DNA of 64,000 nt from Halieaceae bacterium (GTDB taxonomy: Bacteria > Pseudomonadota > Gammaproteobacteria > Pseudomonadales > Halieaceae). A program made the position numbers and the translations under genes. Shown here piece by piece: positions 8,233 through 27,540 of this stretch; positions within the stretch are counted from its first letter, which is position 1; each line of letters opens with the position of its first letter. Where the stretch lies: contig CABYEX010000005.1 in assembly GCA_902518075.1 (NCBI GenBank), positions 1 through 64,000 on the forward strand. The letters run 5' to 3'. Under the pieces are notes generated by a model. That model worked only from the letters and a program-made list of their open reading frames with translations, was not told where the DNA came from and made no database searches.

Positions 8233-8246
8233 CCAGCCCGCTTGTT
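8233..8246 (-). promoter_or_regulatory. Operator-like motif, site A1 (ligase/ACAD divergent promoter)
   Basis: On the minus strand this reads AACAAGCGGGCTGG and fits the shared consensus A-R-Y-A-A-G-C-N-N-G-M-Y-K-G found at five main promoter sites in this island. It is embedded in a longer imperfect palindrome (8225-8248) with AAAACAA and TTGTTTT arms. It lies between the divergent ligase and ACAD genes. Binding by the TetR protein encoded at 13341 is inferred. Confidence 0.65.
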
Positions 8247-8256
8247 TTATCCGTTG

Positions 8257-8270
8257 CAGACCAGCCTGTT
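8257..8270 (-). promoter_or_regulatory. Operator-like motif, site A2 (weaker second copy)
   Basis: The minus strand reads AACAGGCTGGTCTG, which matches 12 of 14 positions of the island consensus. It lies 24 bases from site A1 in the same divergent promoter, a spacing of a little over two helical turns that would suit two regulator dimers. The match is weaker than at the other sites. Confidence 0.4.
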
Positions 8271-8319
8271 TCTAGGTGCGGCGACGGAGAGCGGGTGATC
8301 ACAGTGTCAGAGGGGTTCC

Positions 8320-9549
8320 ATGATAGTTCCGAGTGAGAAGAGCGCGCGCATACTGGCCGAGTTGCAGGCCTTTATGTCAGAGCACATCTACCCGAATGAG
8401 GTGGCTCATCAGGAGGCGCTTGCGGGCGCTGATAACCGCTTCGCGTCCATGCCTCTCGTCGAATCTTTAAAGGACAAGGCCCGCAGCGCGGGGCTCTGGA
8501 ATCTCTTTGTGCCACCTGAATACGCCGAGTACAGCGATCATGGCGGCATGAGCTTTCTGGATTACGCGCCGCTGGCTGAAGAAATGGGGCGCGTAATCTG
8601 GTCGCCGGAGGTGTTCAACTGCAATGCGCCAGACACTGGCAATATGGAAGTGCTGATGAAGTTTGGCACGGAAGCGCAGAAGGCCGCTTGGTTACAGCCC
8701 CTGCTGGCCGGTGAGATTCGATCCTCGTACGCCATGACTGAGCCACAGGTTGCCTCCAGTGATGCAACCAACATCCAGCTCGATATCCACCGTGACGGTG
8801 ACGAATGGGTTCTGAATGGCCATAAGTGGTTCATCACCGGTGCGCCCTACGAGCGCTGCAAAATTTTTATCGTCATGGGTAAGAGCGATGCCGAGAACCC
8901 GAACCGACATTTGCAGCAAACCCAGATTCTTGTGCCCAAAGACACGCCGGGTGTAGAGGTGCTACGCCCGCTGACCACGCTTGGCTATGACGATGCACCG
9001 ATTGGGCATGCCGAAGTGACGTTCACTGATGTCCGCGCGCCCGCAGAAAATCTTTTGCTCGGTGAGGGTAGGGGGTTTGAGATCGCACAGAGCCGTCTGG
9101 CCCCCGGCCGGATGCACCATTGCATGCGTCTTATCGGCGCCGGGCAGCGCTGCCTTGAGCTCGCCTGCCAGCGCGTAGAAGACCGGGAAACCTTCGGCAA
9201 AAAACTGAGCCAGCATCAGTCGATTCGCGAGAACATCGCCAAGAGCTATGCTGAGCTGGAAATGGCGCGATTATTGGTTCACAAGACCTGCTGGCACATC
9301 GATCATCACGGCGTAAAGCCCTCAATCGAACTGATCTCGGCCACTAAAATCAGTGTGCCGCTAGTGATTCAGTCGATTATCGACCGCTGCATGCAAATGC
9401 ATGGCGCGGGTGGGCTGACCGAGGATTGGTGTATGGCCGAGCAGTTTAACTATGCGCGCTGGTGTCGTCAGGCTGATGGTCCTGACGAGGTGCACCAAAT
9501 GGCACTCGGCAAACGCATTATTCAGCAGTACGCTGAGGCGTCGAAGTGA
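8320..9549 (+). CDS. Acyl-CoA dehydrogenase family protein (ACAD10/11-like)
   Basis: This 409-residue acyl-CoA dehydrogenase has AMTEPQVASSDATN (the TEP..SSDA signature) and LNGHKWFITGA in the beta-domain, RVEDRETFGKKLSQHQ in the third domain, and a C-terminal HGAGGLTEDW followed by RQADGPDEVH. That last pattern is typical of ACAD10/11-like and FadE-type long-chain enzymes rather than short-chain ones. A strong ribosome site (AGAGGGG) precedes the ATG. It heads a rightward pair with the SnoaL-like gene at 9659. It is transcribed divergently from the ligase operon through the region holding operator sites A1 and A2. Confidence 0.88.
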   Translation: MIVPSEKSARILAELQAFMSEHIYPNEVAHQEALAGADNRFASMPLVESLKDKARSAGLWNLFVPPEYAEYSDHGGMSFLDYAPLAEEMGRVIWSPEVFNCNAPDTGNMEVLMKFGTEAQKAAWLQPLLAGEIRSSYAMTEPQVASSDATNIQLDIHRDGDEWVLNGHKWFITGAPYERCKIFIVMGKSDAENPNRHLQQTQILVPKDTPGVEVLRPLTTLGYDDAPIGHAEVTFTDVRAPAENLLLGEGRGFEIAQSRLAPGRMHHCMRLIGAGQRCLELACQRVEDRETFGKKLSQHQSIRENIAKSYAELEMARLLVHKTCWHIDHHGVKPSIELISATKISVPLVIQSIIDRCMQMHGAGGLTEDWCMAEQFNYARWCRQADGPDEVHQMALGKRIIQQYAEASK

Positions 9550-9658
9550 TCGCGTGATGCTGGCGCGTTGAATTCAAAACCGCTGGCGGTGACTCTGAGT
9601 CATGGATGCGGAATCGCGATAGAGCGATAAAGACAACCTTAGAGAGGGGGGTAGGACG

Positions 9659-10063
9659 ATGACCGATGACGAGAAGATGGCTTTTGTGCAGCAACTCTAT
9701 GCCACAACGGGTGCCGGGGATTTTGATACCGCCGAGACCATGCTGACCGACGATTTTTTCATCATTGAGGCCGAGGGCCTGCCGATGGCAGGGGAGTACC
9801 GCGGCAAGAGAGCGCTGCGCGATTTGTACTCACACGTCTTCGGGACATTGAAGGTTACTGACCTCGAGCCCGAGGGGATGACCGTCGGCGGCGATTATGT
9901 GATCAATGTGATTTCCTTCCGCTTCGAAGAACCCAGTCTTGCCCCCGCGCAACTGGCAGAATTGTTCCGCTTCCGTGACGGTAAAGTGTGCGAGATTCGC
10001 CCCTATTACTTTGACCCCAAGCCCATTGTGGATGCCTGGGCTCACTACAGTAGCGCCGCGTGA
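9659..10063 (+). CDS. SnoaL-like / NTF2-fold protein (island copy 1)
   Basis: A 134-residue protein with the NTF2-like alpha+beta cone fold pattern: a helical N-terminus (YATTGAGDFDTAETMLTDDF), a central GEYRGKRALRDLY segment and C-terminal strands (LFRFRDGKVCEIRPYYFDP). The superfamily includes ketosteroid isomerases, SnoaL cyclases and dehydratases. Here a role as isomerase, hydrolase or dehydratase of a CoA or cyclic intermediate is inferred from context only. A strong purine-rich ribosome site precedes the ATG. An intrinsic terminator follows 20 bases after the stop. Confidence 0.75.
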   Translation: MTDDEKMAFVQQLYATTGAGDFDTAETMLTDDFFIIEAEGLPMAGEYRGKRALRDLYSHVFGTLKVTDLEPEGMTVGGDYVINVISFRFEEPSLAPAQLAELFRFRDGKVCEIRPYYFDPKPIVDAWAHYSSAA

Positions 10064-10138: not shown

Positions 10139-11518
10139 TTAACTCAGGTATTTGTCGATGGTCTGATGCAAATGCCGGATTCGGCTTTCCTGATAGCTGG
10201 CGAGAATGACCTTGCCGGTCGCTGAGTTTTTCATACCCTTCTGTACCGCCGGCAGGTTGGCGTCATCCTGATCAAAAACCCCTCCCAGTGAGCCCAGCTC
10301 TTCGTGGGACGCAAAAGGCTGATCTGCAGGGATCACCGTACAGGGGACCGCGGCCGGGCGCTCGCTACCTTTGGGGTAGCGCAGCAGAATGCGCACGTCG
10401 AAGATACAGCTGTCAGGGTCATTTCCATTGGGCAAAAAGCGATAAACGATGTTGCCGCCATAGCCGATCCAGACTTGGAAGTTCGGAAACAGGCTGTAGA
10501 GAATCGCATCCTGAAGCTCGGCCATAGTGGGGTCATCGAATTGCTCCCCGGCCGCTTCCTCAAACATCTCCCGGTTCATCTTCGCCACATACTCTCGCGC
10601 ACTTTGGCCGTCGTTCATCTGGACGCCTTCATCACTGTCCGTAGCCATGCGGCCTGATAGTTTCAAAATATCCCGGGTGATAGTTTCTTCCGAGACACCG
10701 CTCAGGTGTGGGCTGGCCACGCCCATAGGTGTCACCGATCGACTGACGTTGTCTCCCCAGCAGTCGTACTGCGAGTTGGCATCGCCGGTGAAGGTGAGGA
10801 TTTGCTTGTGGGTCTCCACAGTGTGCCAGGACTCCATGAAGGCCTCGGCGCCCACTTTCCAGTTGCAGTTCATCACGCGTTGTACGTGCACACCCGTGAA
10901 GTACTCCTCCAGCGGAAAGCGATTGAAATGGTCTGGCAAGACATCCATGTAGTCTTCGAGCGGCGGTGCATCCTGATCAAAGTTGATGAAGACGAAGCCA
11001 CCCCATGTCGCGACCTTCACCTGTGGCAGACTCATGTCGCGGCCTTCGATGTGCTCGAAGTCCCACTGATTCGGGATGCCTTGGAACTGTCCTTCCAGAT
11101 CCCAAGTGGCGCCGTGGAAGGGGCAGCGGAATTTATCGACAGACCCCGACTCGTCGCGCAAGCATCGCCCGCGATGTCGGCACGAGTTAATGTAGCCTTT
11201 GATCTCGCCCGAGGGTGTCCGGGTGACGATTACACTGCGGTCGATAATCCAGTATACGTGGTGATCACCCGGCTCGGGGATCTCCTCTTCGCGGCAGGCC
11301 ATTTGCCAGACGCGGGGCCACATTTCTTCTTTCTCTTTGTCGAAGAACTCCTGACTGATATACCGCTCGACAGAGAGATCCTCGTCGCCCATATTGGGAT
11401 TATTCTGAATCCGCAGATATTCGGGGACATCGACGGTTTCCAGATCAAGCAGGTCCTGCCAGGTCGTGCCGACGAACCGGCCGCCATCTCCCTGTTGCTT
11501 TTGTTCCGCGTTTGCCAT
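10139..11518 (-). CDS. Aromatic-ring-hydroxylating-type Rieske oxygenase, alpha subunit (459 aa)
   Basis: The terminal oxygenase of a Rieske non-haem iron system. The Rieske 2Fe-2S ligands are C113, H115, C132 and H135 (CRHRG...CPFHG). The mononuclear iron region is NCNWKVGAEAFMESWHTVETH, giving H232 and H237 with a nearby acidic bridge. At 459 residues it is like ring-hydroxylating dioxygenase large subunits, yet no small beta subunit gene is adjacent. An AAAGGA ribosome site precedes the ATG at 11518. It ends the leftward operon DUF35-thiolase-Rieske. It would hydroxylate a ring or side chain using electrons from a ferredoxin, possibly the one at 19233 (inference). Confidence 0.9.
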   Translation of the reverse strand: MANAEQKQQGDGGRFVGTTWQDLLDLETVDVPEYLRIQNNPNMGDEDLSVERYISQEFFDKEKEEMWPRVWQMACREEEIPEPGDHHVYWIIDRSVIVTRTPSGEIKGYINSCRHRGRCLRDESGSVDKFRCPFHGATWDLEGQFQGIPNQWDFEHIEGRDMSLPQVKVATWGGFVFINFDQDAPPLEDYMDVLPDHFNRFPLEEYFTGVHVQRVMNCNWKVGAEAFMESWHTVETHKQILTFTGDANSQYDCWGDNVSRSVTPMGVASPHLSGVSEETITRDILKLSGRMATDSDEGVQMNDGQSAREYVAKMNREMFEEAAGEQFDDPTMAELQDAILYSLFPNFQVWIGYGGNIVYRFLPNGNDPDSCIFDVRILLRYPKGSERPAAVPCTVIPADQPFASHEELGSLGGVFDQDDANLPAVQKGMKNSATGKVILASYQESRIRHLHQTIDKYLS

Positions 11519-11562
11519 GGTTAATCCTTTTTAAATTTCGCTTGAGTTAACGAAACGCGCGC

Positions 11563-12705
11563 TCAGCGCGCGAGAATATTAACGCCACTGATGCCTGGTG
11601 CACCGTACACATGGGTATAGCCAACTTTGGGCTCGTTCGGTACCTGTCGTGCATCCCCATCACCCCGCAGCTGCACACAAATTTCGTGGACCTGTCTGAG
11701 TCCCGACGCGCCAACGGGTTCGCCATTGGCGAGGCAGCCACCATCGGTATTCACGGGCAGCCGGCCGCCGATTTCAGTCACCCCGTCGGCCAGCCATTGT
11801 TCTTGATCGCCGTGATCACAAAAGCCGTTCTCGGCCATGTGCATGATTTCCGCGCCGACCTCAGTATCTTGAAGTTGGGCGACATCGATATCTTCCGGCC
11901 CTACCCCTGCCAGTTCGAATGCGGCCTGCGAGGCGGTCACCGTCGGCGAATCTGCAACTTCTGGCGGTTGAGCAGGACTGAACACCTCGAAACTGCCGTA
12001 GTTTCTGGATCGCACCACCGCGGTTTTCAAATAGACCGGGCGTGGATGAAATTCGTGTGCGATATCGGCCCGGCAGACGATCAGGGCGCAGCCGCCTTCA
12101 GCAGGCGAACAAAACATGTATTTGTTGAGGGGCTCACTGACCATAGGTGCATTGTCAATCTCTTCCCACGACAGTGCCGTCTGGCGCCACGCCGTCGAGG
12201 TCAATGAGCCGTTGCGGAACGCTTTCTCGGCCACGCGGAGTAGTGTCTCTCGTGAGATGCCATGGTCGTGCATGTAGCGCTGAATCTTCATGCCGAAATA
12301 TTGGGTGGTGAGCATCAGGCCGGTTTCGCCGTACCAGTCGTCGAGTCCCCAGTCAGCGGGCTGCGGGTTGAAGGCACCGCGGTCATGTTTGTCGAAGCCG
12401 ACTACCAATCCGACGTCGTATTGGCCACTTTTGATCGCCGAGTAGGCTGCGTTAAGAGAGCTGCCTCCCGTTGCGCAACCGTTTGCCACGTTGGTGAACT
12501 GAAGTCCGGTGAGGCCCAGTAAATTCACCAGCGAGTCGGCATTACCGCTGTCCTGGCTGCCGCCAAAGGCAAATTCCATGCGTTTAAAGTCGGTGCCTGC
12601 GTCAGCAAGTGCTGCCCGGGCCGCGGCCGCACCTTGCTCAAGGCCTGACATAGTGGGGGTTCTGCCAAAGGGGTGCATCCCCAATCCAACAATTGCCACG
12701 TCCAT
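11563..12705 (-). CDS. Thiolase-fold protein, SCP-x/Ltp2-like, possible retro-aldolase
   Basis: This 380-residue protein has a thiolase fold and resembles the lipid-transfer/SCP-x class: NGCATGGSS with Cys77, NTDGGCLANGEPVGASG, and a C-terminal HVYGAPGISG. The usual thiolase C-terminal CxG block is absent, and a Tyr (about residue 367) stands in that region, as in Ltp2 steroid side-chain aldolases. It still keeps the N-terminal Cys, so either thiolysis or aldol cleavage is possible. Its ATG overlaps the DUF35 gene's stop (ATGA), and in Ltp2-ChsH2 systems the DUF35 partner is required. It would cleave a C-C bond in a CoA thioester. Confidence 0.82.
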   Translation of the reverse strand: MDVAIVGLGMHPFGRTPTMSGLEQGAAAARAALADAGTDFKRMEFAFGGSQDSGNADSLVNLLGLTGLQFTNVANGCATGGSSLNAAYSAIKSGQYDVGLVVGFDKHDRGAFNPQPADWGLDDWYGETGLMLTTQYFGMKIQRYMHDHGISRETLLRVAEKAFRNGSLTSTAWRQTALSWEEIDNAPMVSEPLNKYMFCSPAEGGCALIVCRADIAHEFHPRPVYLKTAVVRSRNYGSFEVFSPAQPPEVADSPTVTASQAAFELAGVGPEDIDVAQLQDTEVGAEIMHMAENGFCDHGDQEQWLADGVTEIGGRLPVNTDGGCLANGEPVGASGLRQVHEICVQLRGDGDARQVPNEPKVGYTHVYGAPGISGVNILAR

Positions 12706-13139
12706 CAGTGTTGCTCCTCTGCCGCGCAGAACTGGAAGGTCAACAGGTTAGTACCCTCCTCATCTTTGCGCACGGTGATCATTTCCATTTTCATCGGCAT
12801 GCCAATGGTGAGTTGCTCCGGCGTATTCTCACGCAGGCGGCTCTCTACTTTCAGGCCACAAGCCAGCTCGATATAGCCTACCCCGTAGGGCGTGAAAGTC
12901 TCTGGTGTCTCGTCGGTATGGTAGGGGGTTTTTGGCATGAACGACTGTATCGTCCAGGTCCACAGCGTGCCTTCGCTGCCAAGATCAGCGACGGCCATGT
13001 TTTGTCCTGAGCAGGCTCGGCAGGCAGATTGGCTGGGAAAGGCGTGCTCTCCGCAGTCTAGGCAGCGGGTGCCGATCAGACTGGGCGTGTCTGCCGGCCA
13101 GCTGAACAGCCCCTCATGGAGTGGTTTGGCGTTGGACAT
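12705..13139 (-). CDS. Zn-ribbon OB-fold protein (DUF35), partner of the thiolase-fold protein
   Basis: A 144-residue DUF35 protein with a rubredoxin-like zinc ribbon (C26-x2-C29 ... C40-x2-C43) followed by an OB-fold domain (GTLWTWTIQSF, YGVGYIELACGLKVESRL). DUF35 proteins bind acyl-CoA and pair with thiolase-fold partners. Its stop codon overlaps the start of the thiolase-like gene by the ATGA arrangement, which points to translational coupling and a 1:1 complex. It is the first gene of the leftward operon starting at the divergent promoter with operator site B. No strong ribosome site is visible before the ATG. Confidence 0.87.
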   Translation of the reverse strand: MSNAKPLHEGLFSWPADTPSLIGTRCLDCGEHAFPSQSACRACSGQNMAVADLGSEGTLWTWTIQSFMPKTPYHTDETPETFTPYGVGYIELACGLKVESRLRENTPEQLTIGMPMKMEMITVRKDEEGTNLLTFQFCAAEEQH

Positions 13140-13244: not shown

Positions 13245-13258
13245 AGCAAGCCGGATTG
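13245..13258 (+). promoter_or_regulatory. Operator-like motif, site B (TetR/DUF35 divergent promoter)
   Basis: AGCAAGCCGGATTG is flanked by an A-run on the left and TTTG on the right and fits the island consensus at every fixed position. It lies between the divergent DUF35 and tetR genes, 83 bases before the tetR ATG, where autoregulation by the TetR protein would be expected (inference). Confidence 0.65.
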
Positions 13259-13340: not shown

Positions 13341-14060
13341 ATGACAGCAAGGAAAGCGAGTGGCACATTGGGCAGGTCGGCCAGTGACCGACAAGCCGGT
13401 GCTAAATCCCGCCGTAGCGCAGAGGGACGCGTTGGTGACGGTTGGCAGGCAGAGAAAAGTGCGCTGACACGTCAGGCCATTCTCGAAGCGGCGGTGCGCT
13501 GCTTTGTCGAGCATGGCTACGCCAATACCACGACTGCGATGATCGCTGATGAAGCGAGCGTGTCTCGTGGCGCGATGATGCATCATTTTCCCTCGCGCTC
13601 AGCGGTAATGAACGCCGTGGTGGGTTATTTGCATGTCAGGCGGCTGAACGAATACCGCGCGTTAATGACCGATATCGATTCTCCCGATCAGACACTGACC
13701 CGTGCTGCAATCCGGCTGTCTGTGGAGAACGCCTGGAAGTACGTCAATCTTCCCTCGTTTATTGCTTATCAGGAATTGCTGGGTGCGGCGCGCACGGATC
13801 CGGAACTGGCCGAAGCAGTCGGAGAAGTGGAGCGCGATTTCGAGCGAGAGTTCTTGAGGACGGTGCGCTCGGTTTTTCCGCACTGGAAGCAGGTGAAATC
13901 GCTGCAGGCGGCACACGATCTGGTGCAATTCGTGATGCAGGGTATGGGTGTGGCGCATCGCTCATCCAATCGGGATCAGCGCGCAAAACGGATGATCGAG
14001 ACGGTGACGGACCATCTGGAGCGCATCTATCGCGCTGATACTGGCGATGGTGAACTTTGA
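13341..14060 (+). CDS. TetR/AcrR family transcriptional regulator, probable local regulator of the island
   Basis: A 239-residue TetR-type regulator. A basic N-terminal extension (about 1-40) precedes the helix-turn-helix region 45-90 (LTRQAILEAAVRCFVEHGY, then VSRGAMMHHFPSR). The larger C-terminal domain would bind a ligand, plausibly a CoA thioester or a cyclic intermediate. The ATG at 13341 is chosen because GGGGA lies 5 bases upstream; the frame is open to 13260 but has no better start. It is the first gene of the rightward unit tetR-SDR-SnoaL. A shared operator-like word occurs upstream of it and of four other transcription units, making it the prime candidate regulator. Confidence 0.88.
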   Translation: MTARKASGTLGRSASDRQAGAKSRRSAEGRVGDGWQAEKSALTRQAILEAAVRCFVEHGYANTTTAMIADEASVSRGAMMHHFPSRSAVMNAVVGYLHVRRLNEYRALMTDIDSPDQTLTRAAIRLSVENAWKYVNLPSFIAYQELLGAARTDPELAEAVGEVERDFEREFLRTVRSVFPHWKQVKSLQAAHDLVQFVMQGMGVAHRSSNRDQRAKRMIETVTDHLERIYRADTGDGEL

Positions 14061-14127: not shown

Positions 14128-14892
14128 ATGGGAATGGTAGAGGGCAAGATCTGTCTGGTGACAGGTGGCGCTTCCAATCCGGGACTGGGCCATGCGATAG
14201 CGCACAAGCTGGCCAGCGAGGGTGGGACCGTCATCGTGACCGATGTAGATGGTGAGGGGGCCGCGCGCACCGCAGCAGAAATTCAGGAGGCGGGCGGGCA
14301 AGCCCAGGCCTGGCAGCAGGATGTGACAGACGAGGCGGTGTGGGACAGCACAATGTCCCAGATCCGCGACGAGCATGGGCGATTGGACGCCCTTATTAAC
14401 AATGCGGGTATAGCGATATTGAAAACGTTACCCGAGCTCAGTTTGGCCGATTACAACCGGCAAATGCTGGTCAATATGACCAGTGTTTTTCTCGGCACCC
14501 AGAAAGCGGTGGCGTTGATGCGCGAGACCCGTGTGAAAGGGTCCATCATCAACATGTCATCGGTCGCGGCACTTGTCGGCGTGCCCGCATGCAGCGCTTA
14601 CGCGGCAGCAAAAGGGGGTGTGATCGGCTTTACCAAGACCATTGCCGCCGAGACAGCTGCTGAGGGTATTCGTTGCAATACGATCCACCCCGGGCTGATC
14701 GACACCAATATGCAGCGGCAGTCGTCGGTGGATAACCCCGAGGAGTATGTGAAGCTGAACGCGGCGGTGCCCATGGGATACATGGGCCCGCCCCACACCA
14801 TTGCGGATGCGGCGCTGTTCTTGGTGTCTGATTTATCCACTTACATGACGGGCGCCCAGATGGTGATCGATGGCGGCCTGATCAATCAATAA
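14128..14892 (+). CDS. SDR family oxidoreductase (island copy 2)
   Basis: A classical SDR of 254 residues with all signatures: TGGASNPGLG (12-21), NNAG (91-94), the serine of NMSSV (144/145), Y158 and K162. The insertion of Asn-Pro in the glycine loop is seen in some 3-alpha/7-alpha-hydroxysteroid-type and FabG-like enzymes. GGGAG lies 5-6 bases before the ATG. It follows tetR by 67 bases and precedes a SnoaL-like gene. It likely oxidises a secondary alcohol on a cyclic or acyl-CoA intermediate with NAD(P)+ (inference). Confidence 0.88.
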   Translation: MGMVEGKICLVTGGASNPGLGHAIAHKLASEGGTVIVTDVDGEGAARTAAEIQEAGGQAQAWQQDVTDEAVWDSTMSQIRDEHGRLDALINNAGIAILKTLPELSLADYNRQMLVNMTSVFLGTQKAVALMRETRVKGSIINMSSVAALVGVPACSAYAAAKGGVIGFTKTIAAETAAEGIRCNTIHPGLIDTNMQRQSSVDNPEEYVKLNAAVPMGYMGPPHTIADAALFLVSDLSTYMTGAQMVIDGGLINQ

Positions 14893-14941
14893 TACGGCGC
14901 GAAGCAATTTAATTGCGAGCGCAACAAGGGGAGTACCGACT

Positions 14942-15355
14942 ATGGGTGACCAGCATTTTGAGGACCAACAGGGCATTCGTGCTTTGCTGGAGCGATATTG
15001 TGAGGGCGTGAATCAGCGAGACGCGGAGGTGTGGGGGTCCACGTGGGCTGAGGATGCCGTGTGGGAACTGCCGCACCTCGACATGGAAGGTCTTCAGGGT
15101 CGTGAAACTATTGTAGGTGCATGGCTTGAGGCCATGAAAATGTTTCCTTTCGTGAACATGATGGCGATGCCGGGAGTGATTACCGTCGACGGTGAGCGCG
15201 CCACCATGCGCAGCTATACCGATGAAGTCGCGGTGATGCAGGACGGCACCGAGTTACGGCCCCGGGGTCAGTACGATGATGAGTGCGTCAAGGTCGACGG
15301 CGAGTGGAAGTTCAGCCGCCGCGTCTTCAAGGTATTGCACGGCGAGGAGACTTGA
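14942..15355 (+). CDS. SnoaL-like / NTF2-fold protein (island copy 2)
   Basis: A 137-residue NTF2-like protein with the pattern IRALLERYCEGVNQRDAEVW, TWAEDAVWELP, GRETIVGAWL, MRSYTDE and DECVKVDGEWKF. This is the layout of SnoaL_4-type proteins common in aromatic, steroid and lindane-type catabolic clusters. Some such proteins are dehydratases or isomerases; none of these activities is proved here. A GGGGAG ribosome site lies 8 bases before the ATG. It is the last gene of the tetR unit and ends 9 bases from the stop of the convergent SDR. Confidence 0.77.
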   Translation: MGDQHFEDQQGIRALLERYCEGVNQRDAEVWGSTWAEDAVWELPHLDMEGLQGRETIVGAWLEAMKMFPFVNMMAMPGVITVDGERATMRSYTDEVAVMQDGTELRPRGQYDDECVKVDGEWKFSRRVFKVLHGEET

Positions 15356-15364
15356 TCGGGCGTC

Positions 15365-16147
15365 TCAGACGCCTGGCAGTCCGGCGGTAGAGCCGCCATC
15401 GATGACGATCTCTGAGCCTGTCACAAATCGCGCCTCCTCGGAGGCGAGGTAAATTACCAGCGACACGATTTCTTCCATGCTGCCCAGGCGGCCCATCGGA
15501 GCGATGCCTTCCAGCATCCCTCTTGCGGCAGCGGGATCAGGCGCGCCATCGATAGCGCCTTGAATTAAAGGTGTTTCAATTACGCCGGGGTGAATCGAGT
15601 TGCAGCGGATCCCGGTTTTGGTTTTCGCCAAATGCACGGCAGTGGATTTGGCCAGCAACCGTAGCGCGCCCTTGGTGGTCGAGTAGGTGACATCCCCCGC
15701 TAATGCGAGCATGCCGTTAATTGAACTGTTCAGGATGATGGAACCGCCGCTCCCGTCAGGATTGGCCTTCATCAGTTCGATGCTCGCTTTGATCGCGAGC
15801 ATCATGCCGGTCAGATTAATGTCGACAAGGTTTTTCCAAGCGTCGACTTCGACCGTCTCGATATCGCTATCACCCGCATTGGTACCAGCATTGGAAAACG
15901 TGACGTCCAGCTGTCCATGCTGGTCGCGGATGGCGGCCTTGACTGCTTCCCAGCCCTCAACGTCCTGCACCGCGTGCTGGATAAAGGTTGCGCCGGTATC
16001 GCTTGCGATCTGATTGCCGGCCTCGGTGTTGTTACCGGTAAAGACGACTCTCGCACCTTCAAGGATCATCCCCTGCACAGCCGCCTTGCCGATGCCGTTA
16101 GTGCCGCCGGTGATGAGGGCAACTTTGTTCTGCAACCTGTTACTCAC
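15365..16147 (-). CDS. SDR family oxidoreductase (island copy 3)
   Basis: A classical SDR of 260 residues: TGGTNGIG (13-20), SNAG (85-88, for NNAG), a serine at 141/142 and Y155/K159. The start is GTG at 16147, supported by GGAG about 8 bases upstream. It stands alone on the minus strand, convergent with the SnoaL gene and divergent from the ABM-Rieske pair across a promoter region that holds operator site C. As one of three different SDRs in the island it probably handles its own intermediate. Confidence 0.88.
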   Translation of the reverse strand: MSNRLQNKVALITGGTNGIGKAAVQGMILEGARVVFTGNNTEAGNQIASDTGATFIQHAVQDVEGWEAVKAAIRDQHGQLDVTFSNAGTNAGDSDIETVEVDAWKNLVDINLTGMMLAIKASIELMKANPDGSGGSIILNSSINGMLALAGDVTYSTTKGALRLLAKSTAVHLAKTKTGIRCNSIHPGVIETPLIQGAIDGAPDPAAARGMLEGIAPMGRLGSMEEIVSLVIYLASEEARFVTGSEIVIDGGSTAGLPGV

Positions 16148-19547: not shown

Positions 19548-19621
19548 TGGGACCCTGAGCTCGTTGCAAAGGAAAATGTCCCTAATGAGAATAAAGTCTT
19601 AGAAATCAGGTTATATTCGAT

Positions 19622-20626: not shown

Positions 20627-20629
20627 CTG

Positions 20630-21838
20630 ATGCCGACACAACTAAGTCAGGTACCCGAGGCGTTACAAAGTGATTTCGACATTGTTGGGGACAGCGGATT
20701 TTTTGCTGATCCTCAGCAGCTATTCCTGGACTCATTGGTTAAAGACCCTCGGGATATCGTTTACACCCCTCATAATGGCGGCCATTGGCTGATCACTTCC
20801 CACGAACTGGCTCGGGAAGTCCTCAGCAATGCCGAATTGTTTGGCTCTTTTCCGATCGGCATCCCCGCCAACATGGAGCAGCGCCCGCGGCTGATCCCGT
20901 TGGAGAGCGAAGCACATGAACATCGTCGTTACCGCCGTCTGCTGCTCCCCATTTTTGAGCCCACGGCCGTGGCGCGCCTGCAGACGGGAGCCGAAGCGCT
21001 CGCCGCTGAGGTGTTGGACGAGGTATTGCCCGCCGGGCAGTTCGACTTTTTATGGAAGGCCGCGAAGCCCATATCAATGGGGCTGTTTGTTCGCCAGTTG
21101 GGATTGGAGCCTGAGCGTCTCGATGAATTTTATGCCTGGGAGACCGGCTTTTATCGCGCGCCCACCATGGAAGAGCGTATCGCCTGCGGAGAGAAGATCG
21201 GCGGTTATCTCTTTGAGGTGGTGACACAGCACGTGGATAGCCCGAAGGATGACATTGTCGACATGTTGCTCAACGTCGATGTGGAGGGAGAGAAGCTCTC
21301 TCTGGAGGAGGTGCACGCGATCTGCTACCTGCTGTTCCTTGCGAGCATCGACACCGTGGCCACCATGCTCAGTTTCATCATTCGCCATCTGGCGAGGGAT
21401 TCAGCGCTGTTTGACAGCCTCAAGGCGGATCGCAGCAAGATCGCCAATTCGGTAGACGAGTTTCTGCGTATGCACGCTTTCATCAACCTGAACCGTATCT
21501 GTGAGCAGGACACGGAATTCCATGGAGTTCAGTTTCGCGCCGGCGATAATATTGTGATTCCGAGCTTTGTCACCGACCGCGATGAGCGGACGTTTGCCGA
21601 CCCCGATACGTTCAATCCGGATCGCAGTAAGAAAGAGCGCAACCAGCACCACGCTTTTGGTGCCGGCGCGCACAAGTGTATTGGCTTGCATGTTGCCAAG
21701 ATGGAGGTGCGGGTCGTGATGGAGGCTTTTTTCGAGCGCGTCGCATCGCTTGAGCTCGTTTCAGAGGAGGCCGTCACCGGGCACGGCGGCACGACGATGG
21801 GGCTCGATACGCTTCCCATAAAAGTGGTGCTCGAATAA
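20630..21838 (+). CDS. Cytochrome P450
   Basis: A soluble bacterial P450 of 402 residues. The haem-binding loop FGAGAHKCIG places the thiolate at about Cys350. The K-helix ExxR is EFLR, and the I-helix carries ASIDTVATM, with the acid-alcohol pair Asp-Thr needed for oxygen activation. No membrane anchor is seen. It sits in the operon behind the Rieske ferredoxin and an MDR and ahead of the flavoprotein. Family members of this size (CYP125/CYP142/CYP107-like) hydroxylate steroids, terpenes and fatty acids; the subfamily cannot be set by eye. Confidence 0.92.
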   Translation: MPTQLSQVPEALQSDFDIVGDSGFFADPQQLFLDSLVKDPRDIVYTPHNGGHWLITSHELAREVLSNAELFGSFPIGIPANMEQRPRLIPLESEAHEHRRYRRLLLPIFEPTAVARLQTGAEALAAEVLDEVLPAGQFDFLWKAAKPISMGLFVRQLGLEPERLDEFYAWETGFYRAPTMEERIACGEKIGGYLFEVVTQHVDSPKDDIVDMLLNVDVEGEKLSLEEVHAICYLLFLASIDTVATMLSFIIRHLARDSALFDSLKADRSKIANSVDEFLRMHAFINLNRICEQDTEFHGVQFRAGDNIVIPSFVTDRDERTFADPDTFNPDRSKKERNQHHAFGAGAHKCIGLHVAKMEVRVVMEAFFERVASLELVSEEAVTGHGGTTMGLDTLPIKVVLE

Positions 21839-21898
21839 TCCTGTGGTGAAGTTGAATCCATAGGCTGACGATGGAAGAGCGTCAGGGCTGGGGGAGAC

Positions 21899-23665
21899 AT
21901 GGCCGATCATAAGAAAATCTCACGCCGCCAAGCTTTGGGCGCTGCCGTGGCGGGAGGTACCGCGGCGACCCTTGGTAGCGCCATACACGCTGAGAGTGTG
22001 AACGGGCAGATTTCTTGGGATCTTGAGGCTGACATCGTCTGTGTTGGTTCAGGTGCCGCGTCTCTGGCAGCTGCCTCGACCGCCGCGGCCGGCGGGGTGT
22101 CGGTCATCGTGCTGGAAAAAGCCGCCGTTCTGGGAGGGACCACAGCCAAGTCCGGTGCAGTCATCTGGATACCCAACCATTTTGGCTTGAAGGCGCGAGG
22201 GATCGCTGATCCCCGTGAAGCCTGTATTCAATTCCTGAGTCGTTATGCGTTTCCGACGCTGTACTCGCCCGATGCGCCGCATTGTGGTCTGTCTGAGTTC
22301 GACTACGAGCGCATCGCCGCGTTTTATGACAACGGCTCAAAGGCCGTTGATTTTTTTCGCGCTGAAGGCATTTTCCAGCTCGCCGAGTGGCGCATGTGGG
22401 GGCTCGACAAGCCCGCGGTGGATTATCTCGAGCACGTACCGGAAAACATGACGCCAATGGGCCGCCCGCTGGCTGCCGTGGACGAGCAGGGCACCTTTTG
22501 TTGGGGCATCGGCATGATCCAGCAAATGGTGGCGTTCCTGAGTAAGCGCGATGTGCCCATTCTGACCGAGCATGCCGTCAAGGAACTGCTGACTGATGCC
22601 ACGGGTGCGGTGATCGGTGTCTTGGTTGAAACCCCCGATGGATTAAAACGGGTCCGCGGTCATCAGGCGGTGATCGTTGCAACCGGCGGCTATGCGCACA
22701 ACACCGATATGATTCAGCGCTATCAGGAGGTGTTTGCCTACGGATCCTGTGCGATGCCCTCATCGCAGGGCGATTTCATCCCCTTGGCAGGCCGGGTCGG
22801 CGCCCAGATGGGCAACTTACACGGTGCGTGGCGTTGCGGCGTGGTACTGGAGCAGGCGCTAGAGAATCGCTCTGTGGGTACCGGGCTTTTCGTGCCACCC
22901 GGTGATTCCATTCTATTGGTCAACCGCTTCGGTCAGCGTTTCGTCAACGAACACCGTAACTACAACGATCGCAGTCGCAGCCACGCGACTTTTGACCCCA
23001 ATCGAGTGGAATTCCCGAACGAGTTTCAGTTCATGGTTTACGATCAGCGCATTGTGGAGACCGTGGGCGAGCAGAACGGTCAGCCCCCCATTAAGCCGTC
23101 AGAAAGCTATGTGATTTCGGGTCAGACACTGTCGGATCTCGCCCAAAAAATCGTTGCGCGCATCGAAGCGCTTGCTCCACAGCTTGGAGGCTATGAGCTG
23201 GACGCGGCATTTGTCCGCAATCTGGAATCCACGGTGCAAAGCTTCAATCAGTATGCATTGGCAGGCCATGACCCGGACTTCGGTCGCGGTGAACTGCCCT
23301 ATGACAATGCTTGGCAGCAGTTATGGGCGCTGCCGACCTATACCGAAACACATCCGGCCAACCCGTACCCGAACCTCTCACTGCATCCCCTAGCAGCTCA
23401 GGGGCCTTATTACGCCATTATTCTGGCCCCCGGTTTGCTCGATACCAATGGCGGACCGCTGACAGATTCCTCAGCCCGCGTGGTCGACAAAGATTTTCAG
23501 CCGATACGTGGCTTATACGGTGCAGGGAACTGCATCTGTGCTCCGACCCGAAATGCCTACGCTGGTGCAGGTGGCACACTGGGTCCTGCGCTGACCTACG
23601 GTTACATCGCCGGTAAACACGCTCTTACCCGAACCGCTGTAGACGCCGCCGGCCGCACTGTCTGA
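21899..23665 (+). CDS. FAD-dependent 3-ketosteroid Delta1-dehydrogenase-like flavoprotein with Tat-type leader
   Basis: A 588-residue flavoprotein of the fumarate reductase/KstD superfamily. The N-terminus has a twin-arginine-like leader (SRRQALGAAVAGG, Arg9-Arg10) and an Ala-rich h-region ending near Ala31. The FAD loop GSGAASLAAA starts at about 50, then LEKAAVLGGTTAKSG. The C-terminal part NAYAGAGGTLGPALTYGY resembles the KstD block with its catalytic Tyr and Gly. It may introduce a double bond next to a ring ketone. GGGGGAG lies just before the ATG. It is the last gene of the ferredoxin operon. Confidence 0.82.
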   Translation: MADHKKISRRQALGAAVAGGTAATLGSAIHAESVNGQISWDLEADIVCVGSGAASLAAASTAAAGGVSVIVLEKAAVLGGTTAKSGAVIWIPNHFGLKARGIADPREACIQFLSRYAFPTLYSPDAPHCGLSEFDYERIAAFYDNGSKAVDFFRAEGIFQLAEWRMWGLDKPAVDYLEHVPENMTPMGRPLAAVDEQGTFCWGIGMIQQMVAFLSKRDVPILTEHAVKELLTDATGAVIGVLVETPDGLKRVRGHQAVIVATGGYAHNTDMIQRYQEVFAYGSCAMPSSQGDFIPLAGRVGAQMGNLHGAWRCGVVLEQALENRSVGTGLFVPPGDSILLVNRFGQRFVNEHRNYNDRSRSHATFDPNRVEFPNEFQFMVYDQRIVETVGEQNGQPPIKPSESYVISGQTLSDLAQKIVARIEALAPQLGGYELDAAFVRNLESTVQSFNQYALAGHDPDFGRGELPYDNAWQQLWALPTYTETHPANPYPNLSLHPLAAQGPYYAIILAPGLLDTNGGPLTDSSARVVDKDFQPIRGLYGAGNCICAPTRNAYAGAGGTLGPALTYGYIAGKHALTRTAVDAAGRTV

Positions 23666-23693: not shown

Positions 23694-24695
23694 CTACAAC
23701 GCGACGATGGTCTTGCCAAAGTTCTCGCCCGCAAATAGATCCGCGAAGGCCTTCCCGACGTTCTCGATCCCTTCGAGGCGATGCTCTGGCGACTGAATGA
23801 CGCCGTTTCGCAACCACTTGGAGAGCTGCTCCCGGGCTTCATCATAGCGATCGTGCCGGAAATGGGTCATGAAACCCTCTACCGAGAGCTCTTTAGTGAT
23901 GAGTTCAAACAGGTTGTTCGGCCCGTGAGGTGTTACGCCATACGTCGAGATTGCGCCGCATAGCACCATTCGACCGCGGTGATTCATGTTGCTGATAACC
24001 GCTTCCAGTGTTTGCCCGCCAACATTATCGAAGAAGACATCGACTCCGTCAGGGCAGGCCTTACCAATGGCCTCTGCCAGCGGTGTATCTCCTGAACGCA
24101 CGACGGCCGAGTCATAGCCCAGCGTGTTGCACAGCCAGTCGGCTTTGGCCTGAGAGCCCACGATGCCCGCCACCCGCGCTCCAGAAAGTTTGGCAATTTG
24201 CCCCGCGATAGTGCCTACCGCGCCGCCCGCCCCACTGATCAACACGCAGTCGTCCGCTGTGGGTTTGGCAATGTCGGTCATACCGAAGTAGGCCGACATA
24301 CCGGTGTCGCCCAAGACGCCCATGTAGGCACTGGGGTTGAACTCGAGTTCACCGGGGAGTCTGGCAATGAAGTCGCTGCCATCGCTCAGGCTGTGGGTTT
24401 GCCAGGCAAAGCGGGCCATCAGCTTGTCGCCGACCAGATAGTCGGGATGTTTTGATTCCAGCACCTCGGCGAGCACCAGGCCCATGACGGGCTCGTCCAA
24501 TTCCATGGCCGGTAACACTTCGTCTCCCGAGTCCTCGTTCATCCAGTTGCGAAAGCCTGCATCCAGCGAGACGAAGGTGTTGCGGGTAAGAAAAAATCCC
24601 TCACCCACCTTGGGCAGGGGGGCTTCCCGGACGGCAAAATCGGCCTCAACGGGGTTCCCCAGTGGCCTTCTGGCCAGTACAACGGAGTGCATCAT
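23694..24695 (-). CDS. NADP-dependent oxidoreductase, MDR family (island copy 3)
   Basis: A zinc-free MDR of 333 residues, more like copy 2 than copy 1: NTFVSLDAGFRNWM, GAGGAVGTIAGQIAK, GVDVFFDNVGGQTLE. A second ATG directly follows the first. It stands alone on the minus strand, convergent with the flavoprotein gene (28-base gap holding the 14-base palindrome CGATGCCGGCATCG at 23677-23690). Its leader lacks the island operator but has two other perfect inverted repeats. Function is presumably reduction of a conjugated double bond. Confidence 0.87.
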   Translation of the reverse strand: MMHSVVLARRPLGNPVEADFAVREAPLPKVGEGFFLTRNTFVSLDAGFRNWMNEDSGDEVLPAMELDEPVMGLVLAEVLESKHPDYLVGDKLMARFAWQTHSLSDGSDFIARLPGELEFNPSAYMGVLGDTGMSAYFGMTDIAKPTADDCVLISGAGGAVGTIAGQIAKLSGARVAGIVGSQAKADWLCNTLGYDSAVVRSGDTPLAEAIGKACPDGVDVFFDNVGGQTLEAVISNMNHRGRMVLCGAISTYGVTPHGPNNLFELITKELSVEGFMTHFRHDRYDEAREQLSKWLRNGVIQSPEHRLEGIENVGKAFADLFAGENFGKTIVAL

Positions 24696-24711
24696 CTAGG
24701 AGTCCTATTTA

Positions 24712-24727
24712 TTCAACTTATGTTGAA
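24712..24727. promoter_or_regulatory. Inverted repeat TTCAAC-TTAT-GTTGAA upstream of MDR copy 3
   Basis: A perfect 6-bp inverted repeat with a 4-base spacer lies 17 bases upstream of the MDR start codon, where a repressor could block transcription. It does not match the island operator word. Confidence 0.45.
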
Positions 24728-24732
24728 GGAGA

Positions 24733-24748
24733 GTGTCTGATCAGACAC
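24733..24748. promoter_or_regulatory. Perfect 16-base palindrome GTGTCTGATCAGACAC
   Basis: An uninterrupted palindrome with no spacer lies 38 bases upstream of the MDR copy 3 start and next to the terminator of the TonB receptor gene. Such short symmetrical sites fit a dimeric regulator; which one is unknown. Confidence 0.4.
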
Positions 24749-24774
24749 AAAAAAGCCACCCGAAGGTGGCTTTT
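24749..24774 (-). terminator. Intrinsic terminator of the TonB-dependent receptor gene
   Basis: The stem AAAAGCCACC-CGAA-GGTGGCTTTT reads on the minus strand as a hairpin followed by a T6 run. It begins 18 bases after the receptor's stop codon. Confidence 0.88.
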
Positions 24775-24791
24775 CAGTGAATGCCGAGTAC

Positions 24792-27086
24792 TTAGAACTC
24801 GTATCCAATCGTCACACCGAGTGTGCGACGTGGTATCAGGCTCGCAAAGGCAAATGCGCCGGCGTCGAAGGGTCGCTCAATGCGGCCGCCATCTTCAAGG
24901 ATGTCGGTGCCGTACACACGGATCATGGCGGTGCCATTACCCATTGACAGCATATAAGTCGCTGAGACGTCGAGGACCTTGAAGTCTTCTCTCAGAATCT
25001 CTGGACCATACTGGAAGTTGTAGGTGCCAAAGTCAGTGCGTCCCCACGCTTCATCGGTGTACTTGTAGTTGGCGTTGATAATCCACTCGCCACCCAAGCC
25101 GTTGATGCGATACTCGCCGCCGATATTGTAGGTCAGCTCAGGCGCCCAGACGACCTCGGCGCGGTCTGAAATGTCGCCAATACCCGCGTAGTCAAAGCGC
25201 GCGTAGTCAGCATCAAGCGTGCCCATGGCGCCGCGCAGCGTCAGGCGGTCAGTGACCATGGCCATGACTTCGAGCTCAAGACCGCTGGTATCGACTTCAC
25301 CTGCGTTGAAGATAAAGGTACAGGTCGGACCACCACAGTTCTCAGGTTGTCCGTTGTAGATGTAGCTGCCGTCGCCAGCAGTGACCACCTGCTCCTGCTT
25401 GTCTTCATAGGAGGCGTCGAAGTAGGTCGCGTTAAAGGTCAGGCGGTTATCGAACCACTCGGAGCGGAATCCGATTTCCATCGAGTCAACGGTCTCTGAG
25501 GCATAGGGACCCACCGTATTTTGGGTCGTGCCGCGGGAGTTAAAGCCGCCAGACTTGAAGCCCGTCGAGTAGGAGCCGTAGATCATGCCGAAATCAAAGT
25601 TACGTTGCAGTACGAGGCGATAGGTGACTTCGTCGTCCTCGAAGTTAAAGTCTTTCCCGTTGGGGAAGGCACCTGCGATCACGAAAAAGTCTTTCTCTTC
25701 TTCAGTGTAACGCGCGCCAGCCGTGAGCTCCCAGGCATCGGTGATGTCCCAGTTAATCTCACCATAGATCGCTCGCGCTTCCAGGTCCTGCAGAGACTCG
25801 ATGACCTGCACCGGGCCTGATTCGAAGGGCGCCTCGCTCTCCATTGTGTAGATACCCGCGACATAGTTGATCGGTCCGTCGAAATCAGACGTGATCTGGA
25901 TCTCGTTAGAGGACTGCTCGAATTCTTGCTCTCGCAACACCGGGAACATACAGGGTGCATCGGAGGGGTTGTCAGGTGTGCCCGTGCCAAAAGGGAAGAT
26001 GATGCCGGGTACGGGCGAGCCCCAGGAGCAGATATCCATGCGCTCTTTGGTGTCCATCGTGGAGGTAATGAACTTCAGATCATGATTGCCAATGCGACCA
26101 TCGATCGCCAGAGCGTAGTTGTTGCCCTGAATTGTGCTCATGAAGTTGCCGCTGGAGTAGGTAGTCGTGTAGTCGTTGGCGCGCGAGCGGTCCGCAGACT
26201 CCGCCTTGCCATGGAAGGGGGAGATCAGCGCGAAACCGTTAGCACCTTCGAAGTTGGGTCCACCGGTGGTGCTGATGCTCAGCAGGTCGACCAATTGGGT
26301 GTTGTCGTTGTAGTTGTCCCAAGTGAACTGCGCTGACCAGTCGTCAGAGAAGTCGTAACGTAATGCAACGCTGGCCGTGACGAGGTCGCGGTTATCAGAG
26401 TTCTCACCCTTAGTGATGTTTTTGGCAAAGGATTCGCTTTGCAGAGAGCGGAGCGAGACCTTGATGCCACCGTTGTCGCCAAGAGGTGCATTCATGATCG
26501 CTTTAAAATCCTGACGCTCAAATTCGTCAAATGTAGCTTGAAGACGCATACCCGCCTCACCGGTCGGCTTGGAGCGCTGGATGTTGATTACCCCACCAAT
26601 GGTATTCCGGCCAAATAGAGTGCCCTGCGGTCCCCGCAGGACTTCTATTGCTTCCACATCGAACAGGTCTACGTTCGCACCCGCCGTTGAAGAGTAGAAG
26701 ACCCCGTCCACTGAAACAGCGACCGTGGGCTCAAAGGTCTTTTCCAAATCGTCCAGGCCAACACCGCGAATGGAGGCAGCCAGAGCGGAGCCCGCAAACG
26801 GTTGCGCAATCAGCTCGACATTTGGCGCCATCTTCGCCACATCTACAACAGAATTCAGATTGCCGCGCTCGATCATGCCGGCGGTCAAAGCAGTCACCGC
26901 AACGGGCACGTCCTGCAGTGATTCCGCCCGCTTTCGGGCGGTGACCACCACCTCTTCGAGGCCGGCGGCTGATTCGTTTTGCGCGATAGCGGGTACAGCA
27001 GTAGTCAGTGCGCCGGCTGTCGTGGCAGCGAGCGCTACGTCGACTGCGCGGCGGATCCATATAGATGGGTGTTGGGATTGTGGCAT
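24792..27086 (-). CDS. TonB-dependent outer-membrane receptor
   Basis: A 764-residue outer-membrane receptor. It has a signal sequence (ALAATTAGALTTAVPAIAQ), a TonB-box/plug start (LEEVVVTARKRAESLQDVPV), the plug motif LRGPQGTLFGRNTIGGVINI, and a beta-barrel ending in an aromatic residue (IGYEF). The ATG at 27086 is preferred to the one at 27104 because GAGAGGA lies about 10 bases before it. The class was first linked to iron complexes, but in catabolic islands such receptors often import hydrophobic substrates. It is the only transporter seen in the island. Operator site E lies about 145 bases upstream of the start. Confidence 0.93.
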   Translation of the reverse strand: MPQSQHPSIWIRRAVDVALAATTAGALTTAVPAIAQNESAAGLEEVVVTARKRAESLQDVPVAVTALTAGMIERGNLNSVVDVAKMAPNVELIAQPFAGSALAASIRGVGLDDLEKTFEPTVAVSVDGVFYSSTAGANVDLFDVEAIEVLRGPQGTLFGRNTIGGVINIQRSKPTGEAGMRLQATFDEFERQDFKAIMNAPLGDNGGIKVSLRSLQSESFAKNITKGENSDNRDLVTASVALRYDFSDDWSAQFTWDNYNDNTQLVDLLSISTTGGPNFEGANGFALISPFHGKAESADRSRANDYTTTYSSGNFMSTIQGNNYALAIDGRIGNHDLKFITSTMDTKERMDICSWGSPVPGIIFPFGTGTPDNPSDAPCMFPVLREQEFEQSSNEIQITSDFDGPINYVAGIYTMESEAPFESGPVQVIESLQDLEARAIYGEINWDITDAWELTAGARYTEEEKDFFVIAGAFPNGKDFNFEDDEVTYRLVLQRNFDFGMIYGSYSTGFKSGGFNSRGTTQNTVGPYASETVDSMEIGFRSEWFDNRLTFNATYFDASYEDKQEQVVTAGDGSYIYNGQPENCGGPTCTFIFNAGEVDTSGLELEVMAMVTDRLTLRGAMGTLDADYARFDYAGIGDISDRAEVVWAPELTYNIGGEYRINGLGGEWIINANYKYTDEAWGRTDFGTYNFQYGPEILREDFKVLDVSATYMLSMGNGTAMIRVYGTDILEDGGRIERPFDAGAFAFASLIPRRTLGVTIGYEF

Positions 27087-27104
27087 GGTCAACTGTCCTC
27101 TCAT

Positions 27105-27540
27105 TGATTTTTGGGGCTTTTCCCGGGTAGCAACGTCTTCATTGCGGAGCTTGTCCGGTCAAGTGGCCGAAGGCTGACATAAGTCTGCTTGGGACGCAAA
27201 CAATGGTGATTGTTTTTTTACATACTTCCCAGTCTGGCTTACTAAAACGGTTTAGGTAAAGCCAAAAATGAGTGCTCGGGTTTACATTTTTGCTGTTAAA
27301 AGGGGTGGAAAAGGCGCTTTAAGACGCCCTAGTTTGATGGCGGCAGTGATGTCGACGGGGATCGTTAATAAGGCGAGCCCGACACCCATAATCAAAGGCC
27401 CCAAGTGCCCAATATCAGCGGGATCTGGTATGGCAGTTTTGATTTTTGCCGACGGCAGTCAATAGTCCGACCGATGTACCGTCGAAGTGCCTGTAACCTG
27501 AATGACGACCCGGGTGCGAGCAAGTCTGGACGGCAGCGGC
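27105..27540. other. Intergenic region upstream of the TonB receptor
   Basis: This stretch contains the receptor promoter and operator site E. A short minus-strand frame at 27282-27389 (35 codons, a hydrophobic stretch then a basic tail) has no clear ribosome site and is not called as a gene. Nothing else is recognised. Confidence 0.4.
27230..27243 (-). promoter_or_regulatory. Operator-like motif, site E (TonB receptor promoter)
   Basis: The minus strand reads AGTAAGCCAGACTG and fits the island consensus. It is the only copy not in a divergent promoter of the core island, and it ties the receptor to the same regulon (inference). It lacks the long A/T flanks of sites B, C and D. Confidence 0.55.

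What the first reader, a model, noticed from the sequence alone, without database searches (positions are those of the whole stretch)
8233..27243. A shared operator word marks an island-wide regulon
Five sites fit A-R-Y-A-A-G-C-N-N-G-M-Y-K-G: 8233-8246 (-), 13245-13258 (+), 16344-16357 (+), 19137-19150 (+) and 27230-27243 (-), with a weaker sixth at 8257-8270 (-). They occupy all four divergent promoter regions of the island plus the TonB receptor promoter. The most symmetrical copy contains CAAGC-AC-GCTTG. Sites B and D are each 83 bases before the rightward start codon. One TetR protein is encoded among the targets. The consensus resembles no operator I can name with certainty; the actinobacterial KstR2 site also has CAAG/CTTG arms but a different spacing.
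Basis: partly seen in the sequence, partly recalled or inferred. Interest (0 to 1): 0.8.

Follow-up and report, generated by a model that had tools for sequence, protein, structure and literature searches.

The report
TetR operator controlling one catabolic island
A marine bacterium very probably switches on a whole 22-gene breakdown pathway together, using one repressor protein and five copies of one DNA switch; this is a known kind of control with a newly recognised switch sequence, and one of the five copies lies at a different spot from the one first proposed.

Summary
The shared operator is real, and the core reading (one local TetR regulon) is well supported. The 14-base word occurs five times in the window against 0.30 expected. 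Four copies (A 8233, B 13245, C 16344, D 19137) are conserved, with flanks, at the same promoters in relatives. The fifth (27230) and the weaker sixth (8257) look like chance: matrix scores -15.8 and -16.9, not conserved. The TonB-receptor operator lies 29 bases away at 27201-27214 (-), score 22.1. A symmetrised matrix from relatives' tetR promoters only ranks B, E', C, A, D first in 64 kb (24.5-31.3; next 8.6). In 16 tetR-bearing relatives, 53 of 57 strict-pattern matches lie in island promoters; in 8 relatives without tetR, 9 of 9 lie inside open frames. tetR and the island's thiolase co-occur in 26 of 57 genus genomes; the two with thiolase only are cut at contig ends. The organism is most likely Luminiphilus-like (Halieaceae). 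Mechanism, inferred: a TetR dimer covers the -35 regions of divergent promoters; inducer and substrate are unknown. New member of a known kind.

The parts
8233..8246 (-). Operator A (core), between the CoA-ligase operon (-) and acyl-CoA dehydrogenase gene (+)
   Evidence: Matrix score 30.7; site >=14 upstream of ACAD3 in 13 of 16 relatives whose fetched region holds ACAD3; alignment of 13 sequences
13245..13258 (+). Operator B (core), between the DUF35-thiolase-Rieske operon (-) and tetR (+)
   Evidence: Score 33.6; 23 of 23 relatives with TetR over 50% identical; alignment of 13 sequences
16344..16357 (+). Operator C (core), most symmetric copy, between SDR (-) and ABM-Rieske oxygenase operon (+)
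   Evidence: Score 38.4; 20 of 22 relatives upstream of RieskeB; TAnnnT box 26.5 bp from the dyad on the right in 23 of 23 and on the left in 22 of 23 sequences
19137..19150 (+). Operator D (core), between MDR reductase (-) and Rieske ferredoxin-MDR-P450-KstD-like operon (+)
   Evidence: Score 39.2; 19 of 19 relatives
27201..27214 (-).
   Evidence: Score 22.1; site >=14 upstream of the TBDR (44-45% identical) in 5 of 5 relatives with sequence to test; AAACAATCACCATTGTTTG identical in two 94-95% orthologues; second-best hit of the symmetrised tetR-only matrix
27230..27243 (-).
   Evidence: Score -15.8; not conserved in closest TBDR orthologues
8257..8270 (-).
   Evidence: Score -16.9; not conserved
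13341..14060 (+). TetR-family regulator (239 aa), proposed repressor
   Evidence: PF00440 57.5 bits against a cut-off of 24; AlphaFold2 pLDDT 85.5, TetR fold
3301..8125 (-). Operon left of A: AMP-binding CoA ligase, two acyl-CoA dehydrogenases, SDR
   Evidence: operon inferred from orientation and spacing
8320..10063 (+). Operon right of A: acyl-CoA dehydrogenase, SnoaL-like protein
10139..13139 (-). Operon left of B: Rieske oxygenase, SCP2-type thiolase, ChsH2-type OB-fold (DUF35)
14128..15355 (+). SDR and SnoaL genes downstream of tetR
15365..16147 (-). SDR left of C
   Evidence: conserved in synteny
16416..17984 (+). Operon right of C: ABM-domain protein, Rieske oxygenase
18069..19079 (-). 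MDR enal/enone-reductase-like protein left of D
19233..23665 (+). Operon right of D: Rieske ferredoxin, MDR reductase, CYP101-like P450, KstD-like flavoprotein
23694..27104 (-). Operon left of E': TonB-dependent receptor, MDR reductase

Best explanation
The TetR-family protein at 13341-14060 is a local repressor. Its dimer recognises a dyad of about 20-26 bp (AAAAARCAAGC-nn-GMTTGTTTTT) present once at each of five promoter regions (A, B, C, D, E'), which together would serve all 22 genes of the island, tetR included. At the divergent regions the operator lies where the -35 boxes would be (in C its two arms read TTGACT rightward and TTGCTT leftward, each 17 bp from a conserved -10-like box), so one dimer would block polymerase in both directions. 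When a pathway compound (identity unknown) binds, the repressor leaves and uptake plus catabolic genes are expressed together. Shown here: the sites, their conservation, clustering and link to tetR. Inferred: operons, binding, repression, autoregulation, promoter boxes, inducer.
For: Conservation upstream of the orthologous genes, score >=14: B 23 of 23, D 19 of 19, C 20 of 22, A 13 of 16, E' 5 of 5 testable (the matrix was trained on strict sites of these same relatives, so this counts conservation and is not a blind test). In raw alignments the operator and -10-like blocks are the main conserved blocks outside the genes. Cross-promoter test: a matrix from 16 distinct tetR-promoter sites of relatives, symmetrised, ranks B, E', C, A, D first in 64 kb, 24.5 or more against 8.6 for the next (those training sites were located with the full matrix). 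Null for the full matrix: 0 hits >=20 in 100 order-1 and 0.01 per window in 100 order-3 random windows. Scans of relatives: 57 matches in 16 genomes with tetR (reversed control 8), 53 of them in island promoters; 9 in 8 genomes without tetR (control 4), all 9 in open frames. TBDR-type pattern: 49 rows in 57 genomes, reversed control 0; a strict-pattern site sits before a TBDR 1.5 Mb from the island in a one-contig genome. -10-like boxes at fixed distance from C in 23 of 23 (right) and 22 of 23 (left) sequences. tetR in 26 of 57 genus genomes, all 26 with the thiolase; two genomes with thiolase only are cut at contig ends.
Against: No binding, expression or ligand data. E' lacks the GC step of the core and scores lower. 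The generic sigma-70 scan found no consensus promoter at any operator (13 found in 8000-27500, 10.3 expected), so promoter boxes rest on conservation and spacing. No conserved -10-like box was seen on the tetR side of B, the ACAD3 side of A, or by the strict rule at E'. One strict match in G088 (contig 32) is off-island and not in an open frame of 80 residues or more. The TBDR-type pattern also matches in 7 of the 31 genus genomes scored without tetR: three of these lie in open frames, two are at cut islands or contig ends, two were not examined. Ten of 29 more distant tetR loci showed no upstream site >=14. In G028 (TetR 43%) the tetR-upstream match is weak, 12.3.
Confidence: 0.82

Rival explanations
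1. The sites are operators, but of another regulator encoded elsewhere; the local TetR controls only itself or something else.
For: Relatives carry many TetR-like candidates in a loose first look. Similar AAACA..C..G..TGTTT dyads occur near other TetR relatives in alphaproteobacteria.
Against: tetR's own promoter carries the site in 23 of 23 relatives; no intergenic site was found by the strict pattern in 8 of the 31 genus genomes without tetR; profile scans of the 22 island proteins found no other regulator.
Confidence: 0.1
2. The local TetR binds the sites but acts as an activator, or as a dual regulator, rather than a simple repressor.
For: Operator overlaps the -35 region, a position used by some activators (recalled); promoter boxes are poor matches to consensus.
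Against: The operator is placed symmetrically between two promoters, and most investigated TetR-family members are repressors (abstract start of PMC3511530 in the listing).
Confidence: 0.06
3. The repeated word is only a shared AT-rich promoter element or a chance word.
Against: Dyad symmetry of the matrix (0.68 at the centre; other shifts -0.09 to 0.54), conservation at tetR where TetR is only 54-58% identical, near-restriction to the island in relatives' genomes.
Confidence: 0.02

Closest known systems
KstR2 and its regulon (Mycobacterium, Rhodococcus; PMC3068626, passages read)
   Same: TetR repressor encoded inside a catabolic island, few palindromic sites in divergent promoters, CAAG/CTTG arms (AnCAAGnnCTTGnT)
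   Different: Here the arms are four bases apart, not two (CAAGCnnGCTTG in C); A/T flanks; a different gene set; no chain named KstR2 among the 60 rows shown of 86 PDB sequence matches (unnamed entries could include it)
EdcR of Caenibius tardaugens (PMC8700777, passages read)
   Same: TetR-like repressor, encoded inside a steroid catabolic cluster, acting on several of its promoters
   Different: Proposed operator TnnCnnTACnAnTnGTAnnGnnA, over the -10 box; C-terminal domain PF16859, not reported for this protein at E <= 0.001
PheR of Sphingobium SHPJ-2 (PMC13273656, passages read)
   Same: Repressor whose loss raises both catabolic genes and TonB-dependent receptors
   Different: IclR family, GCAACG motif
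TetR-like EGO55_16300 of the bsd I bile-salt cluster, C. tardaugens (PMC12882949, passages read)
   Same: Local TetR with proposed palindromes in the cluster's intergenic regions
   Different: Proposed palindromes ATAGGGCCATTG and GCATGCGGGATGC; no binding shown in the passages read

Membership tests
TetR family of regulators | N-terminal TetR_N helix-turn-helix domain | tested here: met
   PF00440 57.5 bits, cut-off 24
TetR family of regulators | All-helical TetR fold | tested here: met
TetR family of regulators | Binds a palindromic operator, often in its own promoter | tested here: inconclusive
   Conserved dyad in the tetR promoter of 23 of 23 relatives; binding not tested
TetR family of regulators | Ligand-dependent release | not testable with these tools
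   Needs protein and candidate ligands
KstR2 | Operator AnCAAGnnCTTGnT | tested here: not met
   Arms are spaced by four bases, not two, in A-D and relatives; KstR2 motif from PMC3068626
KstR2 | Sequence orthology to KstR2 | tested here: inconclusive
   No chain named KstR2 among 60 rows shown of 86; no direct comparison made
EdcR | Operator TnnCnnTACnAnTnGTAnnGnnA | tested here: not met
   Different arms and spacing
EdcR | C-terminal domain PF16859 | tested here: not met
   Only PF00440 reported at E <= 0.001

The most novel reading that the evidence does not exclude
A previously undescribed TetR-operator pair defines an uncharacterised uptake-and-catabolism pathway for an unknown cyclic (terpenoid- or steroid-like) compound, kept as a Rieske-SCP2 thiolase-OB-fold core with its divergent tetR across several marine gammaproteobacterial genera; its operator arms serve as both divergent -35 boxes and also tag displaced TonB receptors, so the operator can be used to find the pathway's receptors.
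Probability: 0.4. Interest if true: 0.58.

Novelty: new member of a known kind. Interest (0 to 1): 0.42.

Why it matters
It gives a testable regulator-operator pair for a conserved but unassigned catabolic island in Luminiphilus, a coastal marine group, and lets the operator be used to assign TonB receptors, also far from the island, to the same unknown substrate. It could become a sensor for that substrate. As regulation it is ordinary in kind.

Tried and rejected
The 83-base spacing as a rule: not general. Two apparent site-C copies in tetR-less genomes (G071, G073): both inside an open frame of 234 residues. KstR2 or EdcR membership: operator differs. Substrate from single proteins: the P450's best PDB rows are CYP101J2 and camphor 5-monooxygenase, the flavoprotein's are 8am8/8am3/8am6 and then KstD-type enzymes, the thiolase's are a benzoylsuccinyl-CoA thiolase subunit, acetoacetyl-CoA and SCP2 thiolases; these do not agree on one substrate, and the 9,10-seco steroid genes were not searched for. 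PMC4810484 (passages) lists the OM60 clade among putative steroid degraders, a lead only. The consensus promoter scan gave nothing at operators. A first TBDR-promoter alignment had two sequences in the wrong orientation and was redone. A regular expression for site C spacing was mistyped and rerun. Fold comparison gave many TetR structures of similar score and no assignment. Paper searches in whose listings (8 to 15 rows each at most, several of longer result lists) I saw no description of this operator; open-licence library only; passages of five papers read.

Rows left out: one search covered 16 genomes with tetR (15 of 26 in the genus plus G134) and 8 of the 31 genus genomes without. Of 24 relatives fetched, G028 (TetR 43%) falls under the identity filter. 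41 of 80 loci were scanned. 16 loci were examined (11 upstream of a TBDR, some of these also overlapped by other open frames; 1 at a contig edge beside the GFA and esterase genes; 4 inside open frames), the rest not. Alignment A3 used 32 of 37 proteins first listed (L159 for a stop codon; L144, L146, L150 and L154 not re-entered). The output was cut in the middle; the sites lost there are.

Full report
Observation. The island from 3301 to 27104 holds 22 genes (domains) with four divergent intergenic regions and one receptor promoter.

Whose genome. The window's own assembly is not held; the nearest held genome, G001, shares 36% of sampled 31-letter words. Contig lengths tie G001, G060 and G113 to a Halieaceae MAG, HTCC2080 and Luminiphilus syltensis NOR5-1B in the titles, so the window is most likely from a Luminiphilus-like bacterium (inference).

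Conservation. A TetR relative at E <= 1e-20 was found in 60 of 140 family genomes; 26 of these are among the 57 of the genus. I fetched regions of 24 relatives. The operator recurs at the same promoters with its A and T flanks. Counting relatives whose fetched region holds the gene (over 50% identical, 44% for TBDR) and a site of 14 or more within 350 bases upstream (800 for C): B 23 of 23, D 19 of 19, C 20 of 22, A 13 of 16, E' 5 of 5, one more at a contig edge. Misses: A in G060, G105 and G109, where ACAD3 and the ligase are not adjacent and a lower-scoring site lies before the ligase instead; C in G113 and G134, where a site lies before an MDR gene instead. These counts use a matrix of 46 distinct sites (70 in all) from the same relatives, window excluded, so they measure conservation and are not blind. 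In alignments of 11 to 13 sequences, window included, the operator is nearly invariant while the two central bases drift in A, B and D, as expected for a dimer site.

Cross-promoter test. A matrix from 16 distinct tetR-promoter sites of relatives only, symmetrised to 26 bp, scores the window's B 31.3, E' 26.6, C 26.0, A 24.8, D 24.5; the next of the whole 64 kb is 8.6. The training sites were located with the full matrix, and B is not independent here; A, C, D and above all E', which the pattern does not match, are predictions across promoters. The unsymmetrised version also ranks the five first (C lowest at 12.3, next 8.8), with A in a register shifted by four bases. With the full matrix, 100 order-1 random windows gave no hit of 20 or more and 100 order-3 windows 0.01 per window.

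Corrections to the finding. In the closest TBDR orthologues (G087, G083; 94-95% identical) the bases of site E are not kept, while AAACAATCACCATTGTTTG, 29 bases nearer the receptor gene, is identical. This E' (27201-27214, minus) is the better-supported operator of the receptor.

Specificity in relatives' genomes. In G001 the 14-mer has 9 matches (reversed control 5): four are island sites, the other five all lie inside open frames. The stricter AARCAAGCNNGHYKGNNT has 57 matches in 16 genomes with tetR (control 8); 53 are island promoters. Of the other four, two lie in open frames, one is intergenic and unexplained (G088 contig 32), and one (G113) sits before a TBDR 68.5% identical to the window's and about 1.5 Mb from the island. 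In 8 genomes without tetR there are 9 matches (control 4), all in open frames. The receptor-type pattern AAACAANCNNNNYTGTTTG has 49 rows (both strands of palindromic sites counted) in 29 of 57 genus genomes and none in the reversed control: 22 of the 26 with tetR and 7 of the 31 without. Of 16 of its loci examined, 11 lie upstream of a TBDR, one at a contig edge, four in open frames. Of the seven genomes without tetR, three have the match in an open frame (G071, G100, G104), two at a cut island or contig end (G074, G077), and two (G073, G093) were not examined.

Regulator. tetR and the island's SCP2-type thiolase: 26 genomes have both, 29 neither, two only the thiolase, and both of these are cut at the contig end. 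Two of the 29 carry an island cut at a contig end (G074) or a receptor-type site at a contig end (G077). Residues of the SRGAMMHHF stretch, in the DNA-binding domain, are invariant or nearly so across 21 proteins. The model has a TetR fold.

Mechanism (inferred). In C both -10-like boxes start 26.5 bp from the dyad and the -35-like hexamers TTGACT and TTGCTT are the two arms, each with a 17-bp spacer; a TAnnnT box stands at exactly that distance on the right in 23 of 23 sequences and on the left in 22 of 23, the exception being G134 (window included). In the window's D the distances are 28.5 and 26.5; A and B have a box at 26.5 and 27.5 on one side, with alternatives at 31.5 and 22.5. The right side of D is two bases longer in G062 and G111. 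A dimer there would block both divergent promoters. The consensus promoter scan does not find these promoters, so the boxes rest on conservation and spacing. The arms contain AAGCAAGC and the matrix has secondary dyad peaks at shifts of four bases (0.53 and 0.54 against 0.68), so overlapping registers or two dimers are possible.

Wider family. Of 29 loci with TetR 49-76% identical, 19 have a site of 14 or more within 250 bases upstream of the tetR match, often more degenerate, and 10 do not (L162 is the same contig as G134 of the training set). The Rieske-thiolase-DUF35 operon faces tetR also in Zhongshania, Aestuariicella, Pseudomaricurvus and Parahaliea.

Known systems. The logic is that of KstR2 and EdcR, but the operator differs from both. 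I saw no description of this operator in the paper searches listed under Tried and rejected. The finding is an ordinary kind of regulation with an apparently new, well-supported operator; substrate and inducer are open.

Noticed in passing
window 8202-8211: An ACTATATAGT block about 27-36 bases from the dyad of operator A is invariant in 13 of 13 aligned sequences; it may be the CoA-ligase -10 box but is itself palindromic.
   Followed up: partly
L220 (G113:C1:2187800-2191800), site near 1985: A TBDR 68.5% identical to the window's, about 1.5 Mb from the island in a one-contig genome, carries the operator: a displaced regulon member.
   Followed up: partly
L162, L164, L167, L170, L173, L174, L178, L195, L196: The Rieske oxygenase-SCP2 thiolase-DUF35 operon divergent from tetR is kept in several other gammaproteobacterial genera, while much of the rest of the island changes.
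   Followed up: partly
L166, L176, L180, L185, L190, L192: SAR92/HTCC2207/Porticoccaceae-type loci have the tetR relative next to an ACAD3 relative (69-71%) with no thiolase match in the about 20-kb locus.
   Followed up: no
L051 (G063), L064 (G099), L052 (G113), L077 (G079), L070 (G105), L057 (G016), L055 (G134): A second site of type AAAAAACATGCTGTAnTGTTT or a variant lies between tetR and an extra SDR gene in these relatives.
   Followed up: no
window 27541-29010: GFA-domain and esterase genes lie beside the receptor gene also in relatives but have no operator match of their own in the window.
   Followed up: no
L222 (G088:C32:8000-11500), near 1722: An off-island strict pattern match not inside an open frame of 80 residues or more; meaning unknown.
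   Followed up: no
L198-L219 (11 loci scanned): More distant relatives of the TetR protein (34-43%), mostly alphaproteobacterial, lie among similar AAACA..C..G..TGTTT dyads, hinting that the whole subfamily reads one operator type.
   Followed up: no
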